From the NCBI GenBank assembly GCA_902519945.1, contig CABYLY010000006.1, positions 1 to 61,595 of the forward strand: a DNA stretch of 61,595 nt, in the 5' to 3' direction. The notes under the pieces are model-generated. The model did not search any database. It saw only the letters and a program-made list of their open reading frames with translations, and had not been told where the DNA came from. Shown here one piece after another: positions 5,237 to 10,148 of the stretch. How positions within the stretch are numbered: the first letter of the stretch is position 1; each line of letters begins with the position of its first letter. Made by a program: the position numbers and the translations under genes. Origin of the DNA: an uncultured Pelagibacteraceae bacterium. Lineage in GTDB: Bacteria; Pseudomonadota; Alphaproteobacteria; Pelagibacterales; Pelagibacteraceae.

Positions 5237-5863
5237 ATGAAGGTTACAATTGTTGATTATAATTCGGGCAATATTAGCTCGGTAATAAACTCTTTTAAAG
5301 AGGTTGCCAAAGATAAAGTAAGTATCGAAGTTACTTCAGATTTAAATAAAATTAAATCAAGTGATAAGTTAGTTTTGCCTGGGCAGGGCTCATTTAAAAG
5401 CTGTGTAGATGCCTTGAATAAAATTAATGGTCTTATTGATACTCTTAATGAATTCGCGATAAGTAGAAAAAAACCACTTCTTGGAATTTGTGTTGGATTA
5501 CAAATGTTTGCTGACATCGGCTATGAGGAAAGAGAAACAAAAGGATTAGGTTGGATTTCAGGTAAAGTCTCAAAAATAGACAATCAAAATGGCAAATATA
5601 AACTTCCTCATATTGGTTGGAATCAAATCAAAATTATTAAAGATAGTAAAATTTTTAAAGATATAGAAAATAATTCCCACATGTATTTTGTTCACAGTTA
5701 TGAGTTTGTTCCAGAAGATACAAATGTAGTTTCGGCAACAACGGACTATTCATCAAATATTGTTTGTTCTGTTGAAAAAGAAAATATTTTTGGAACTCAA
5801 TTTCATCCTGAAAAAAGTGATAAAATAGGTCTTAAAGTAATTCAAAATTTTATAGATTTGTAA
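5237..5863 (+). CDS. hisH: Imidazole glycerol phosphate synthase, glutaminase subunit HisH
   Basis: A 208-aa class I glutamine amidotransferase that supplies ammonia to HisF. The nucleophile is C85 in GICVGLQMF, and the His/Glu of the triad lie in FGTQFHPEKSD near the C terminus. The early PGQGSF block is also conserved. In related genomes hisA would be expected directly downstream. Here about 3.5 kb of methyltransferase and nuclease genes intervene. Confidence 0.95.
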   Translation: MKVTIVDYNSGNISSVINSFKEVAKDKVSIEVTSDLNKIKSSDKLVLPGQGSFKSCVDALNKINGLIDTLNEFAISRKKPLLGICVGLQMFADIGYEERETKGLGWISGKVSKIDNQNGKYKLPHIGWNQIKIIKDSKIFKDIENNSHMYFVHSYEFVPEDTNVVSATTDYSSNIVCSVEKENIFGTQFHPEKSDKIGLKVIQNFIDL

Positions 5864-5894
5864 TATTAAGTACTTCTAAGGTTTATTTAAATTT

Positions 5895-7109
5895 ATGAAA
5901 TCAAATTTTACATTTATCGACTTATTCGCAGGTTGTGGTGGTTTATCGGAAGGTTTTTATAAACAAAAATTTATACCCTTGGCTCATGTTGAAAACGATT
6001 ATTATTCTTGTGAGAGTTTGAAAAAAAGAATGAGTTATTATGGGTTCAATGATATAAAAAATGCAGTCATACATAAAGACATTAAAGACAAGAATATAAT
6101 AGATACCATAAGCAAAGTTACAAAAAATAAAAAAATTGATATTATTTTAGGCGGTCCACCTTGTCAGAGTTTTTCATCTTTAGGTCGTGCTAAAGATAAA
6201 AATTCAATGAAAAATGATCCTAGAAATTATTTATTTGAAAATTACGAAAAAATTTTAAATTATTTTACACCAAGCATATTTCTTTTTGAAAATGTAACAG
6301 GTTTGTTAACTGCGAAATTTAAAAATAAAAAAGTAGTTGATGTAATAAAAAGTAAACTTGGAAAAAAATATAATATTTTAAGCAACGTCAAAGAAATTGT
6401 GTTAAATTCTTGTGAGTATGGTGTTCCACAAATCAGAAAGAGAGTTTTTCTAATTGGTATAAGAAATGATATTAGTTATGAAGTTGAAAAGATCTTTAAA
6501 AATATAGTTAAGTCTCATTATGTGCCATTTTCTGATAGTGAAGATAGAAAAGGTAAAAAAAAATTTATTTCTGTAAAAGAGGCAATTTTTGATCTACCAA
6601 AAATTAAGCCCGGTGAAGGTAAAGTAATTTGTAATTTTAAAAGTAAAATTAGTAATGAATATATAAGAAAAATTCGATCTAATTATGAGACAAAATTAAA
6701 TGATCATGTTTCAAGAACTCACAACAAATTAGATAGGATGAGATTTAAAGAAATGAGTAAAAATAAGTGGACATATGAGGAATTATTAAAAAAAAAACCA
6801 AATCTAAATCACAAAAAACAAAGAGTTTTTAAAAATAGCTATGTTGTACAATTTTGGGACCAACCTTCTAGAACTATAATTTCTCATCTATATAAAGATG
6901 GAAATCAATTTATCCATCCTGATCACAAGCAAGAGAGAACTTTAACAGTAAGGGAGGCTGCAAGATTACAATCTTTCCCTGATAATTATTATTTTGCAGG
7001 TCCACGAACTGAACAATTCAAACAAATCGGAAATGCTGTACCACCAATTATGTCTGAGAAAATAGCAATTAGTATTAAAAAAGCACTTAAGGTTATAAAA
7101 AGTGTTTGA
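5895..7109 (+). CDS. DNA (cytosine-5) methyltransferase 1 of the RM-like cassette
   Basis: A 404-aa m5C methyltransferase. Motifs run in canonical order: I (SAM binding) FIDLFAGCGG at residues 7-16; IV GGPPCQSF with catalytic C90; VI FENVTG near 132; VIII YGVPQIRKRVFLIGIR near 175-190; then a target-recognition region; and X QIGNAVPPIMSEKIA close to the end. The SRTI block before motif IX is also seen. No fused extra domain is present. It follows hisH after 31 bases with no clear Shine-Dalgarno, and its stop overlaps the GTG start of the second methyltransferase. It is clearly distinct in sequence from that second enzyme. The recognition sequence cannot be read from the protein. Confidence 0.95.
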   Translation: MKSNFTFIDLFAGCGGLSEGFYKQKFIPLAHVENDYYSCESLKKRMSYYGFNDIKNAVIHKDIKDKNIIDTISKVTKNKKIDIILGGPPCQSFSSLGRAKDKNSMKNDPRNYLFENYEKILNYFTPSIFLFENVTGLLTAKFKNKKVVDVIKSKLGKKYNILSNVKEIVLNSCEYGVPQIRKRVFLIGIRNDISYEVEKIFKNIVKSHYVPFSDSEDRKGKKKFISVKEAIFDLPKIKPGEGKVICNFKSKISNEYIRKIRSNYETKLNDHVSRTHNKLDRMRFKEMSKNKWTYEELLKKKPNLNHKKQRVFKNSYVVQFWDQPSRTIISHLYKDGNQFIHPDHKQERTLTVREAARLQSFPDNYYFAGPRTEQFKQIGNAVPPIMSEKIAISIKKALKVIKSV

Positions 7110-8589
7110 GTTAATAAGCAATATTAAGACTAATAAAGAAAAAAAATTCTTTATAGAAAAAATAAATATTTATATAAAATTTACAAACGCAATAGCTCAA
7201 TCATTAAACCTAGAAAACAATCATTTAAATGATCAATTGACACCCAAAGTTGTTTTAGAATTAATTAATTTAAATATTTTCAAATCAAAAGGTAATTTTG
7301 AAAGTCTATATTTAAACAAAATATTAAAAAAAGAATTAAATTCAAAATTTTTATCATCCATTAATTTTAATATTAAAAATAGAAAAAAAATTGGAAACTC
7401 ACTTGATATATTCTATCCCAACAAAAAAGTGAAAAATTTTAAAAAAAATTTTTTTACAATAGCAGATTTTTTTTGTGGAGCAGGAGGATTAAGTTTTGGA
7501 TTTTCTCAAGAAAATTTTAAGATTATATTAGCTAATGATAACGATGAGGATTGTGTAGAAACATACAAATTAAATCATCCAGAAGTTACAAAAAGTAGAG
7601 TCTTCAAAGAAGATATTAAAACTTTAATAAAAAAAATTGATGTAAAATTTCACAAAAAAATTGATGTAGTCGTTGGTGGACCACCTTGTCAGGGCTTTAG
7701 CAATGTCAACCAGCAAAGAATTATAGATGATCCTAGAAATAAACTTTATAAGTATTTTGTTCAAGCGGTAAAAAAGATAAATCCTAAAATTGTTGTGATG
7801 GAGAATGTAAAAGGAATGTATCCTTATGCAGACCAAGTAAAACAAGACTTTGAAAAGATTTCTTACGCCATGACATATGATATTTTGGTTTCAGATCAAT
7901 TTGGTGTTGCACAAAAAAGACCAAGACTTTTCTTTATCGGAATCAGGGAAGATATAATTAAAAAAAAAAAAATTAAAATAAGTGATGTTTTTGCTGAAAT
8001 TAAAGAAGAAACAAAAAAACTTAAAAAACACATGTTAAAAGATGCGTTAGCTTTCATTAAACCTCTAGTTTCACCAAGAATAAAAAATATGACAGAGAGT
8101 GATGATGAAAGAACTGGAAAAAAAGTTGATATAAACCTATTTTCAGGAAATGAAAATTCTTACCTGAAGTTAATCAATCAAGGTCGAAAAATTGACTTTA
8201 TATTTAATCATAAAGCCAGGTATGCAAGCGATGTAAATTATGAAATTTTTTCAAAATTAGGTCAGGGTGAAGATGGTACAAGTAAAAAAATACAACATGT
8301 TTTTCCTTACAAACATAGAAATCATATATTTAAGGATAAGTACTTCAGATTGGATGAAAATAAACCTTCTAGAACTATAACTGCACATTTAAGAATGGAT
8401 TGTCTTTCACACATTCATCCCACGCAAATAAGAACAATTACTCCAAGAGAAGCTGCGAGAATTCAATCTTTTCCGGATGATTATTTTTTTTTAGGACCGT
8501 ATTTAAAAACTTATATGCAAATTGGTAATGCAGTTCCACCAATAATGGCAAAACATATTGCAAAAGTAATTAAAAAATATTTAAATTAA
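7102..8589 (+). CDS. DNA (cytosine-5) methyltransferase 2 of the RM-like cassette
   Basis: A 495-aa m5C methyltransferase starting at GTG inside the end of the first. It has an extra N-terminal region of about 115 residues, lysine/asparagine-rich and mainly helical, with no motif I recognise. The catalytic domain follows: motif I ADFFCGAGGLSFGF (near residue 121), motif IV GGPPCQGF with catalytic C196, motif VI MENVKG, motif VIII FGVAQKRPRLFFIGIR, and motif X QIGNAVPPIMAKHIA. All catalytic motifs are intact. Two non-identical m5C enzymes beside one nuclease is the pattern used by type II systems with asymmetric sites, where each enzyme protects one strand. Confidence 0.95.
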   Translation: MFELISNIKTNKEKKFFIEKINIYIKFTNAIAQSLNLENNHLNDQLTPKVVLELINLNIFKSKGNFESLYLNKILKKELNSKFLSSINFNIKNRKKIGNSLDIFYPNKKVKNFKKNFFTIADFFCGAGGLSFGFSQENFKIILANDNDEDCVETYKLNHPEVTKSRVFKEDIKTLIKKIDVKFHKKIDVVVGGPPCQGFSNVNQQRIIDDPRNKLYKYFVQAVKKINPKIVVMENVKGMYPYADQVKQDFEKISYAMTYDILVSDQFGVAQKRPRLFFIGIREDIIKKKKIKISDVFAEIKEETKKLKKHMLKDALAFIKPLVSPRIKNMTESDDERTGKKVDINLFSGNENSYLKLINQGRKIDFIFNHKARYASDVNYEIFSKLGQGEDGTSKKIQHVFPYKHRNHIFKDKYFRLDENKPSRTITAHLRMDCLSHIHPTQIRTITPREAARIQSFPDDYFFLGPYLKTYMQIGNAVPPIMAKHIAKVIKKYLN

Positions 8590-8592
8590 ATT

Positions 8593-9435
8593 ATGATTAA
8601 TTCATGGCGAAAAGTTTTATCAAAAACAGATATTGGTGAGGGTGGGACACATGATAAATATTTGAACATTCCTAAAAAAATTTTAGTTAATGGTGAAAAA
8701 CAGAGTCCATTCTTTGGATCAGACAAAAACCCAACAGAATTTTATAATCGTCAACCAGGAAGACCAGGAAAAGAAAATTGGGTTTTTGTAGATCATGTAG
8801 ATAAAATAACCGGAGATGTTTATAAGGCTAGATTTGAATATGCTAGAGTGAGTAAGCAGACACGTTTATATCGATTAGCAGAATGTTATAATGCAAGAAA
8901 ACCAAAAGCAGGAGATGTAATTGTTGTTGAAAAAATAGAAAGTGATGGTGAAGTTAATTTCATAGTAGATATTGAAAGAAATGGTTTATCTATAAATGTC
9001 TTAAGTCCAGCAGAAATAGAAAAGTCTTTAAAATTAAAAAAAATAATTAAAAAAAAGCCAGAAACAAATATATTTCTCAATAAAATTAACCCTAGTTTGG
9101 ATAAATATGCCAGTGGTAAAAGCAGAAAATCTACAGACATAATTAAAAGAGTACAAATTTATAAAATAATATTTACTATTAACAACAAAACATTTGTTTA
9201 TGTTGGCCAAGACTCATTATGTAGAGGTGTTAATTATTATTTTGGGTCATCAATATTAACTGGATTTTGTGAATTAGTATATGGTCGTCAAATTTTTAAA
9301 AAAGAAATTTTATTTACTTTAGAAAATATTGTTAAAAAAAAAGTCGATAAAAAGGAATGGGATTGTATTTACGAAGCAAGAAGAGAGTGTAAAAAAATGG
9401 GTTGGCACAATATAAATAGAGAAGTTCAGTTATGA
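8593..9435 (+). CDS. Probable restriction endonuclease with C-terminal GIY-YIG-like domain
   Basis: A 280-aa protein. The C-terminal part (about residues 185-280) carries a GIY-YIG-like core: QIYKI at 188-192 and YVGQ at 203-206, 12 residues apart. R211 follows, then YFGSS at 216-220 and FKKEIL at 235-240. Glutamates E244 and E261 are candidate metal ligands. Residues about 20-130 form a mixed, probably beta-rich domain (ENWVFVDHV, GDVYKARFEYARV, AGDVIVVEKI) that could be a DNA-recognition barrel; I cannot identify its family. A lysine-rich linker (140-180) joins the two. Position directly after two m5C methyltransferases supports a type II endonuclease. The TGA overlaps the hisA ATG. A homing-type nuclease is the main alternative. 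Confidence 0.7.
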   Translation: MINSWRKVLSKTDIGEGGTHDKYLNIPKKILVNGEKQSPFFGSDKNPTEFYNRQPGRPGKENWVFVDHVDKITGDVYKARFEYARVSKQTRLYRLAECYNARKPKAGDVIVVEKIESDGEVNFIVDIERNGLSINVLSPAEIEKSLKLKKIIKKKPETNIFLNKINPSLDKYASGKSRKSTDIIKRVQIYKIIFTINNKTFVYVGQDSLCRGVNYYFGSSILTGFCELVYGRQIFKKEILFTLENIVKKKVDKKEWDCIYEARRECKKMGWHNINREVQL

Positions 9436-10148
9436 AAATATTTCCAGCCATAGATATTAAAGATAAAAAGTGCGTAAGATTAATCAAAGGAGATTTTGAC
9501 AATAAAACCGAGTACAAAATGTCTCCAGTTGAACAAGCTGCTAAATATAAGGATCATGGCTTCAAAAACTTGCACATAGTTGATCTAGATGGCGCATTAA
9601 AAGGACAAACAATTAATTTAGATATTATTCAAGAAATTGTAACTAAATTTGACCTTAAAATTGAAATTGGTGGAGGTATTAGAAATTTTGAAAGTATTCA
9701 GAAATATACAGATGCTGGTGTAGAGAAAGTTATTTTAGGAAGTGCCGCTATAAAAGATAAAAATTTTTTAAAAGAAGCGTGTGAAAAATTTCCAAATAAA
9801 ATTGCTTTAGGTTTAGATGCTAAAGATGGGTACCTATCAGTGTCTGGATGGAAAGAAAATTCTAATCAATTAGCCTTAGATTATTTAAGACAAGTTAATG
9901 ATTACGGTGTAAGTAGAATAATTTATACAGATATCAATCGAGATGGTATGAAACAAAGCCCAAACTTTGAGGAAACTTTAAAAGTTGCTGAGATATCTAA
10001 TTGTCCTGTGGTTATATCTGGTGGAGTTTCGTCAATAGATGATATTAAAAAAGCAAGGAATTTAAAAAACGTTGAGGGTATAATAGTTGGTAAAGCAATT
10101 TATGACGGAGATATAAAATTAGAGGAGCTAGTAAAAGAAGATGCTTAA
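9432..10148 (+). CDS. hisA: ProFAR isomerase HisA
   Basis: A 238-aa (beta/alpha)8 barrel that isomerises phosphoribosylformimino-AICAR phosphate. The general acid/base aspartate is D8 in [14 protein letters not shown]. The phosphate-binding loops EIGGGIRN and VISGGVSS are seen. The start overlaps the stop of the nuclease gene (ATGA), so translation is likely coupled to the cassette upstream. The stop overlaps hisF by 8 bases. Confidence 0.96.

What the first reader, a model, noticed from the sequence alone, without database searches (positions are those of the whole stretch)
5895..8589. Two dissimilar m5C methyltransferases imply an asymmetric recognition site
Both enzymes keep all catalytic motifs (C90 and C196 in PPCQ). 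They differ in length, in N-terminal extension (about 115 residues in the second) and in the region between motifs VIII and IX that reads the target. A palindromic site needs only one enzyme. Two suggest one per strand, as in type IIS-like systems. The combination with a GIY-YIG nuclease is not one I know.
Basis: partly seen in the sequence, partly recalled or inferred. Interest (0 to 1): 0.55.

Follow-up and report, generated by a model that had tools for sequence, protein, structure and literature searches.

The report
Two-methylase restriction cassette with GIY-YIG nuclease

Summary
M1 (5895-7109) and M2 (7102-8589) are complete m5C methyltransferases with catalytic C90 and C196, 36% identical overall and 25% in the target-reading region. 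The third gene R (8593-9435) has a C-terminal GIY-YIG nuclease domain by profile comparison. The trio recurs in one other marine record with R inverted, and there both target-reading regions are as conserved as the cores.

M2 belongs to the clade of methyltransferases found in LlaJI-type cassettes; LlaJI itself reads the asymmetric site GACGC/GCGTC. All 11 M2-clade and all 6 M1-clade rows examined lie beside a second m5C methyltransferase. M2's usual partner type (9 of 11) is replaced here by an M1-type enzyme. One enzyme per strand of an asymmetric site is the best reading (about 0.8), but not compelled: a published two-5mC-methylase system reads palindromic GCGC.

HgaI and LlaJI already show the principle. 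What looks new is a partner-swapped pair guarding a GIY-YIG enzyme, which may use a B3-like DNA-binding domain (marginal support only). No recognition sequence could be derived: site-avoidance tests were negative and structure prediction failed.

The parts
5895..7109 (+). M1: m5C DNA methyltransferase, 404 aa (catalytic C90)
   Evidence: PF00145 E 2.6e-61; TIGR00675; motifs; clade with L007 and L041-L044 of the same order
6603..6935 (+). M1 target recognition region (residues 237-347, between motifs VIII and IX)
   Evidence: 63% identical to L007 M1 against 59% for the core; 25% identical to M2
7102..8589 (+). M2: m5C DNA methyltransferase, 495 aa (catalytic C196), clade of LlaJI-type cassettes
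   Evidence: PF00145 E 5.1e-68; tree, 11-row clade 100/98
7102..7458 (+). M2 N-terminal extension (119 residues), no Pfam match, poorly conserved
   Evidence: 36% identity to L007 M2 against 64% for the core; almost absent in L048; no Pfam hit
8065..8430 (+). M2 target recognition region (residues 322-443)
   Evidence: 66% identical to L007 M2, 36-51% to the eight other clade members aligned
8593..9435 (+). R: putative restriction endonuclease, 280 aa; its stop overlaps the hisA start
   Evidence: 74% identical homologue beside the same two methyltransferases in L007
9157..9417 (+). R C-terminal GIY-YIG nuclease domain (Y190, Y203, E255, N275)
   Evidence: hhalign to SegH/SegD: probability 95.9, E 6.4e-9 for that one comparison, 0 of 100 shuffles; PHROG homing endonuclease E 4e-4
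8593..9057 (+). R N-terminal domain, possible EcoRII-N/B3-like DNA-binding domain (motif LSKTDIGEGGTHDKYLNIPK)
   Evidence: hhalign to EcoRII-N loci E 0.006 (HH probability 6%, 1 of 100 shuffles) and 0.004 (9%, 0 of 50); most other comparisons not significant; PF09217 itself no hit

Best explanation
A Type II (IIS/IIA-like) restriction-modification cassette placed between hisH and hisA. Shown here: two complete, divergent m5C methyltransferases and a linked protein with a GIY-YIG nuclease domain, kept together in two divergent copies (this window and L007). Inferred: R reads a short non-palindromic sequence with its N-terminal domain (perhaps B3-like) and cuts DNA there or nearby with the GIY-YIG domain. 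M1 methylates a cytosine in one strand of that sequence and M2 a cytosine in the complementary strand, so that after replication each daughter duplex keeps a methylated strand. M2 belongs with the pair enzymes of LlaJI-type cassettes and has an M1-type enzyme in place of the usual FPCQ-type partner.
For: Both enzymes complete, TRDs differ. Trio conserved in L007 with M1 61%, M2 58%, R 74% identity although R is inverted; both TRDs as conserved as the cores. M2 clade: 11 of 11 rows beside a second m5C methyltransferase; M1 clade: 6 of 6 (window and L007 count in both). In the order, 7 of 10 other genomes with an m5C match at E <= 1e-30 have two m5C methyltransferase units, one of them fused in a 743-aa protein. 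GIY-YIG assignment. Precedent: LlaJI, two 5mC MTases, GACGC/GCGTC; HgaI, M1 GmCGTC and M2 GAmCGC; review: asymmetric sites need separate M recognition domains.
Against: No methylation data. Two 5mC methyltransferases with a palindromic site are reported (RM.MhoIV), and an asymmetric site can be protected by one degenerate enzyme. Only one other record holds the trio. No candidate site is avoided in the genome: GACGC obs/exp 0.91, z -1.1. R as a whole has no significant family or PDB match, and both structure predictions failed (pLDDT 34.0 and 33.6). Restriction activity is untested.
Confidence: 0.78

Rival explanations
1. One palindromic (or degenerate palindromic) site methylated redundantly or jointly by both enzymes.
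For: RM.MhoIV is reported with two 5mC methyltransferases and palindromic GCGC. BsuM of B. subtilis (ydiO and ydiP beside ydiR/ydiS; passage) is recalled as a two-methylase system for palindromic CTCGAG; the site comes from no call.
Against: The two TRDs are only 25% identical against 36% in the core, and each is separately conserved in L007; redundant enzymes would be expected to lose one member.
Confidence: 0.1
2. Two unrelated specificities: one cognate methyltransferase for R plus one hitch-hiking or antirestriction methyltransferase.
For: Solitary m5C methyltransferases are common (general knowledge); two of the 10 order genomes show one m5C gene with no second m5C methyltransferase in the fetched 12.0 and 9.0 kb (L049, L050).
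Against: All three genes are retained together in L007 after rearrangement, and both enzymes belong to lineages that are paired in all 17 rows (15 loci) examined (and the locus listings).
Confidence: 0.08
3. R is not the partner nuclease but a modification-dependent (type IV-like) GIY-YIG enzyme or a homing-type endonuclease beside a methylase pair.
For: GIY-YIG occurs in phage homing enzymes, the nearest match found, and in the type IV enzyme CMoRE (abstract).
Against: R carries the GIY-YIG domain at its C-terminus, while CMoRE has it at the N-terminus and is single-component (abstract). R is the most conserved gene of the trio and stays with both m5C methyltransferases; an enzyme cutting 5mC DNA would be expected to harm this host.
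Confidence: 0.04

Closest known systems
HgaI / RM.MhoVI (Type IIS, two 5mC methyltransferases, one restriction enzyme)
   Same: Two separate m5C methyltransferase genes plus one restriction gene in one cassette; reported M1 GmCGTC and M2 GAmCGC (PMC12376442, abstract and passages).
   Different: No HgaI protein could be compared here, so homology of R or of the methyltransferases to HgaI is untested. The M. hominis cassette also holds an XRE regulator gene (abstract); none lies in this one.
LlaJI-type systems
   Same: M2 lies in the clade of methyltransferases of LlaJI-type cassettes. LlaJI itself: asymmetric GACGC/GCGTC and two 5mC methyltransferases (PMC1459862), site read through a B3 domain (PMC12707154 passage).
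   Different: No McrB-like R1 and no R2 here; the FPCQ-type second methyltransferase is replaced by an M1-type enzyme. The authentic pNP40 LlaJI record was not held; comparison is with an annotated plasmid cassette and look-alikes with AAA_5 genes.
GIY-YIG restriction enzymes Eco29kI, Cfr42I, Hpy188I
   Same: GIY-YIG catalytic domain in a Type II restriction enzyme (PMC4081073 passages).
   Different: Those read palindromic CCGCGG and TCNGA; Eco29kI and Hpy188I are called Type IIP there. No significant match of R to any PDB chain (none at E <= 10; one at E 1.2).
m5C-pair cassettes of the same order with HNH or PLD+B3 nucleases (L041-L044, L047, L048)
   Same: m5C methyltransferase pair plus one R protein; M1 relatives 42-44% identical in L041-L044, M2 relatives in L047 and L048.
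   Different: Nuclease domain is HNH_2 in five and NgoFVII PLD with B3-like C-terminus in one (L043).

Membership tests
Type IIS/IIA R-M with two 5mC methyltransferases (HgaI-like) | Two complete m5C methyltransferase genes with different TRDs beside a restriction gene | tested here: met
   that R restricts is inferred from its nuclease domain and linkage
Type IIS/IIA R-M with two 5mC methyltransferases (HgaI-like) | Asymmetric recognition sequence, each enzyme modifying one strand | not testable with these tools
   needs methylation calls; the site-avoidance proxy was negative
Type IIS/IIA R-M with two 5mC methyltransferases (HgaI-like) | Restriction enzyme cuts unmethylated DNA at or beside the site | not testable with these tools
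   no assay
LlaJI system | Methyltransferase of the LlaJI-cassette clade | tested here: met
   M2 in an 11-row clade 100/98 with the enzyme beside an annotated 'LlaJI family restriction endonuclease'
LlaJI system | McrB-like R1 and PD-(D/E)XK R2 | tested here: not met
   Only R (280 aa) lies between M2 and hisA; R has no such family match
GIY-YIG nuclease superfamily | Sequence similarity over the domain with the two Tyr, YIG-type Gly, Glu and Asn positions | tested here: met
   hhalign to SegH/SegD 81 columns, E 6.4e-9 (one comparison; templates picked), 0 of 100 shuffles
GIY-YIG nuclease superfamily | Match to Pfam PF01541 | tested here: not met
   no match of R at E <= 1, of its domain or the L007 domain at E <= 10, or at R in the genome search at E <= 10
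GIY-YIG nuclease superfamily | GIY-YIG fold | tested here: inconclusive
   models pLDDT 34.0 and 33.6
EcoRII-N / B3 DNA-binding domain | Match to PF09217 EcoRII-N | tested here: not met
   none in the own genome at E <= 10
EcoRII-N / B3 DNA-binding domain | N-terminal LSxxDxGxxGxHxxxxxIPK-type segment and B3-like profile | tested here: inconclusive
   local match E 0.004-0.006, HH probability 6-9% (0 of 50, 1 of 100 shuffles); LlaJI-type R1 N-termini score lower against the same EcoRII-N set (E 0.063, 2 of 50); against EcoRII-N alone the global mode gave 12 of 60; most other comparisons not significant
DISARM (DrmMII) | DrmMII-like methyltransferase with DISARM drm genes beside it | tested here: not met
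   M1's best PADLOC model is DrmMII E 1e-101, with generic MTase_II E 2e-94 next, but the neighbours are M2, R and his genes

The most novel reading that the evidence does not exclude
The cassette is the first example of a GIY-YIG restriction enzyme for an asymmetric site, a B3-like reader fused to a GIY-YIG cutter. It is guarded by a methylase pair put together from two different two-methylase lineages, so that asymmetric R-M systems evolve by swapping strand-specific half-enzymes and nuclease modules independently. This cassette and the HNH and PLD cassettes of the same order would be products of one such module-exchange pool.
Probability: 0.45. Interest if true: 0.58.

Novelty: new variant of a known kind. 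Interest (0 to 1): 0.46.

Why it matters
If right, it extends GIY-YIG restriction enzymes from palindromic to asymmetric sites. It shows a methylase pair whose two halves have other partners in other genomes, which makes the evolution of asymmetric recognition testable: M2 enzymes with either partner should methylate the same or a related half-site. Two-methylase cassettes are also the common form among the sampled order genomes that carry an m5C enzyme like these (7 of 10 with a match). Practically, it offers two strand-specific 5mC enzymes and a small (280 aa) nuclease to characterise.

Tried and rejected
Structure of R: single-sequence and two-row AlphaFold2 jobs gave pLDDT 34.0 and 33.6; no fold search was run on them because a match would be meaningless.

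More R homologues: 4 of 397 order genomes matched, the own genome and three weak hits (E 1.3e-4 to 6.2e-4) to part of R's first 150 residues inside a 1,387-aa frame; the one opened with translation (L004) is RNA polymerase beta' by Pfam, so I judged all three chance, L005 and L006 by frame length alone. 1 of 398 phylum genomes matched, the own. None in viral contigs, phages or plasmids at E <= 0.01. One in the 84,980-genome collection (a pattern-seeded search that finds close relatives only).

Target-site avoidance in 840,438 bases of the own genome: GACGC 154/169, GCCGC 173/151; CCGC, GGCC, GCGC, CCGG, CCTC, GCAGC, GGTGA, GCATC, CCCGC and CTCGAG not depleted; CCTGG/CCAGG 632/699 (z -2.5, rank 55 of 512). 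The strongest 6-mer class GGNNCC (0.61) and GAATC (0.48) are similarly low in same-family relatives (0.69, 0.50; 156,919 bases), so not cassette-linked (one search crashed after its first block and was rerun).

B3 domain of R: comparisons with N-termini of the HNH R proteins, the PLD-R B3 domain and LlaJI-type R1 N-termini were not significant (7, 15, 58, 17 and 12 of 60 shuffles; 18 and 4 of 50; 12 and 19 of 60 global, the first of these against EcoRII-N). Only EcoRII-N (local), and a comparison with a combined EcoRII-N plus HNH-R set (global 0 of 60, local 1 of 60), stood out. EcoRII-N was chosen because the motif was recalled, so this is a selected comparison.

Considered and rejected: DISARM (no drm genes beside it), LlaJI system proper (no R1/R2), CMoRE-like type IV enzyme (domain order, methylases present), GIY-YIG homing gene. 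Rows dropped: L009 (its methyltransferase stretch is identical to L008's), L014 and L015 (26% partial hits). Of 128 plasmid records matching M2 only the two best were opened; of 180 matching M1 none. The motif pattern missed the partner methyltransferases of L041-L043, L047 and L048; they were found by BLAST and read, and are not in the tree.

Papers: PMC1459862, PMC12376442 and PMC12898733: abstract and passages. PMC4267653: passages that include its abstract. PMC12707154, PMC4081073, PMC3990576, PMC11779793, PMC5737866, PMC7559349, PMC8156514: passages. PMC12923530: abstract. Others: listings. I saw no report of a GIY-YIG enzyme with two m5C methyltransferases in the listings; that is not a search of REBASE, which was not available.
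Full report
WHAT IS THERE. The window is part of a 1.0-Mb, 36-contig assembly, 78% complete. Between hisH (5237-5863) and hisA (9432-10148) lie three same-strand genes: M1 5895-7109 (404 aa), M2 7102-8589 (495 aa, GTG start) and R 8593-9435 (280 aa), overlapping or almost touching. M1 and M2 are the only two PF00145 matches in the assembly. They are 36% identical (131/368), but only 25% in the VIII-IX region.

R IS A GIY-YIG PROTEIN. Pfam, NCBIfam and PADLOC give nothing for R, nor does PF01541 at E <= 10. Its C-terminal 99 residues match a PHROG homing-endonuclease family (E 4e-4); full-length R and its L007 homologue do not reach that family. By tblastn they match T-even SegH and SegD weakly (E 0.06-0.08), the latter annotated GIY-YIG. 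A profile comparison of R and its L007 homologue with SegH/SegD gives probability 95.9 and E 6.4e-9 over 81 columns at 40% identity; none of 100 column-shuffled controls reaches it (51.0 against a maximum of 17.0). SegH and SegD had been picked as the best phage hits, so that E-value is for a selected single comparison. The aligned catalytic positions are Y190, Y203, E255 and N275, all kept in L007.

R'S N-TERMINUS. Residues 7-28 (KVLSKTDIGEGGTHDKYLNIPK) resemble the N-terminal segment of EcoRII-N domains (KRLSxNDxxAxxxHQAGxYxPK in six loci found with PF09217). The profile match is E 0.006 (HH probability 6%, 1 of 100 shuffles) and 0.004 (9%, 0 of 50). As a yardstick, LlaJI-type R1 N-termini from viral contigs score less against the same EcoRII-N set (E 0.063, 2 of 50); the review PMC12707154 says LlaJI reads its site through a B3 domain, but these particular proteins are not proved to. 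Other comparisons (HNH-R, PLD-R B3, LlaJI R1, global mode against EcoRII-N alone) were not significant, PF09217 itself does not hit, and structure prediction failed. I hold a B3-like domain at about 0.65.

THE TRIO IS A UNIT. One relative of R was found in the 84,980-genome collection: L007, a 22-kb contig titled Rhodospirillaceae bacterium isolate AG-919-G06. It holds M1 (61%), M2 (58%) and R (74%) homologues, with R convergent to the methylases and a phage-integrase-family gene next to M1. The taxon rests on the record title alone; the fetched stretch is 28% G+C, so a mobile island or a misplaced contig is possible, but the copies are clearly divergent. The TRDs are as conserved as the cores (M1 63% against 59%; M2 66% against 64%), so both specificities seem to be under selection. 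Beyond the own genome R was not found in 397 order genomes (three weak hits judged chance) or 398 phylum genomes, nor in phages, plasmids or viral contigs.

BOTH METHYLASES COME FROM PAIRED LINEAGES. A maximum-likelihood tree of 30 m5C methyltransferase rows puts M2 in an 11-row clade (100/98) with enzymes of LlaJI-type cassettes: a Treponema plasmid with an annotated LlaJI family endonuclease, a Pedobacter plasmid, five viral contigs and two genomes of the window's genus (L047, L048). Each of the 11 has a second m5C methyltransferase gene beside it; in nine this is an FPCQ-type enzyme like the one of the Treponema cassette (seven in the tree, two by BLAST), and in the window and L007 it is an M1-type enzyme. 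M1's six-row clade (98/98) has four members in other order genomes (L041-L044), each beside another m5C methyltransferase. One M2-clade gene (L047) is split into two frames. The rows were found by similarity to M1 or M2, not by being paired, but they are few and not independent. This is the main evidence for one enzyme per strand, and it shows that the M2 lineage has changed partner.

NUCLEASE MODULES ARE EXCHANGED TOO. In the order, m5C pairs stand beside R proteins with HNH_2 (L041, L042, L044, L047, L048) or NgoFVII-type PLD plus B3 (L043) domains. In viral contigs, M2-clade pairs are followed by AAA_5 (McrB-like) genes (L008, L011, L012, L013) or, in L010, by a convergent HNH gene. A profile of the HNH proteins of L010 and L011 shares part of its N-terminal region with those AAA_5 proteins (41 columns, E 2e-7, 0 of 50). 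Of the 10 other order genomes with an m5C match at E <= 1e-30 (11 of 247 including the own genome), six have two adjacent m5C genes. One (G188) has a 743-aa protein with motifs I, IV, VI, VIII and IX twice, motif X reading GNAV and GNAF. One (G198) has an m5C gene beside an N6/N4 methyltransferase gene. Two have a single m5C gene in the fetched stretch.

PRECEDENT. LlaJI: two 5mC methyltransferases, asymmetric GACGC/GCGTC (PMC1459862). HgaI and MhoVI: M1 GmCGTC, M2 GAmCGC (PMC12376442; results and discussion of that paper disagree about which motif recombinant M2 marks, and no activity of recombinant M1 was detected). The review PMC12707154 states that asymmetric sites need separate M recognition domains and that LlaJI has two methyltransferases for this. 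Against necessity: RM.MhoIV has two 5mC methyltransferases for palindromic GCGC, and M.NgoAVII/M.CglI protect asymmetric GCCGC with one GCSGC enzyme. The GIY-YIG restriction enzymes named in the Type II review passages, Eco29kI, Cfr42I and Hpy188I, read palindromic sites.

NO SITE. 840,438 bases of the own genome show no avoidance of GACGC or most other sites tried (CCWGG slightly low, 0.90). The depleted classes (GAATC 0.48, GGNNCC 0.61) are also low in pieces of same-family relatives (0.50 and 0.69; 156,919 bases), in which R was either not found or not sought, so they do not point to this cassette.

PLACE. Of 18 same-genus relatives searched, 16 gave a hisA locus: 7 have hisH and hisA adjacent, 8 hold another single open frame between them and one could not be judged; all 11 loci from the other family of the order have them adjacent. 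The cassette sits at a variable spot of the lineage.

VERDICT. Observation confirmed. Asymmetric, one enzyme per strand, is the best reading (0.78) but is not proved. The kind is known (HgaI, LlaJI); the partner-swapped pair with a GIY-YIG enzyme is a new variant as far as I could search.

Noticed in passing
window 5863-9432 (hisH-hisA junction); L053-L068: The hisH-hisA junction is an insertion hot spot in this genus: empty in 7 of 16 relatives, holding another single open frame in 8 (read by eye: two alike secreted-looking proteins in L056 and L062, FkbM-like methyltransferases, a pilin-like protein and others), undetermined in 1.
   Followed up: partly
L051 1755-3986: A single 743-aa protein with two sets of m5C methyltransferase motifs (motif X reads GNAV and GNAF), apparently a natural fusion of two cytosine methylases in the window's genus.
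   Followed up: partly
own genome (840 kb read) and relatives: GAATC/GATTC is depleted about two-fold while GACTC is not (obs/exp 0.48 against 1.24); the GAATC depletion is also seen in same-family relatives. GANTC is the CcrM site (recalled).
   Followed up: no
own genome (840 kb read) and relatives: All 16 GGNNCC 6-mers are under-represented (0.45-0.75, together 0.61); similar in same-family relatives (0.69) but not in the other family of the order (1.10, 63,730 bases).
   Followed up: partly
L043 8014-9018: A methylase pair of the window's genus stands beside an NgoFVII-type PLD plus B3 nuclease, while closely similar pairs (L041, L042) have an HNH nuclease: a nuclease swap within related cassettes.
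   Followed up: partly
L047 5095-6270: The M2-type gene of this cassette is split into two reading frames while its partner methylase and HNH nuclease genes are open.
   Followed up: no
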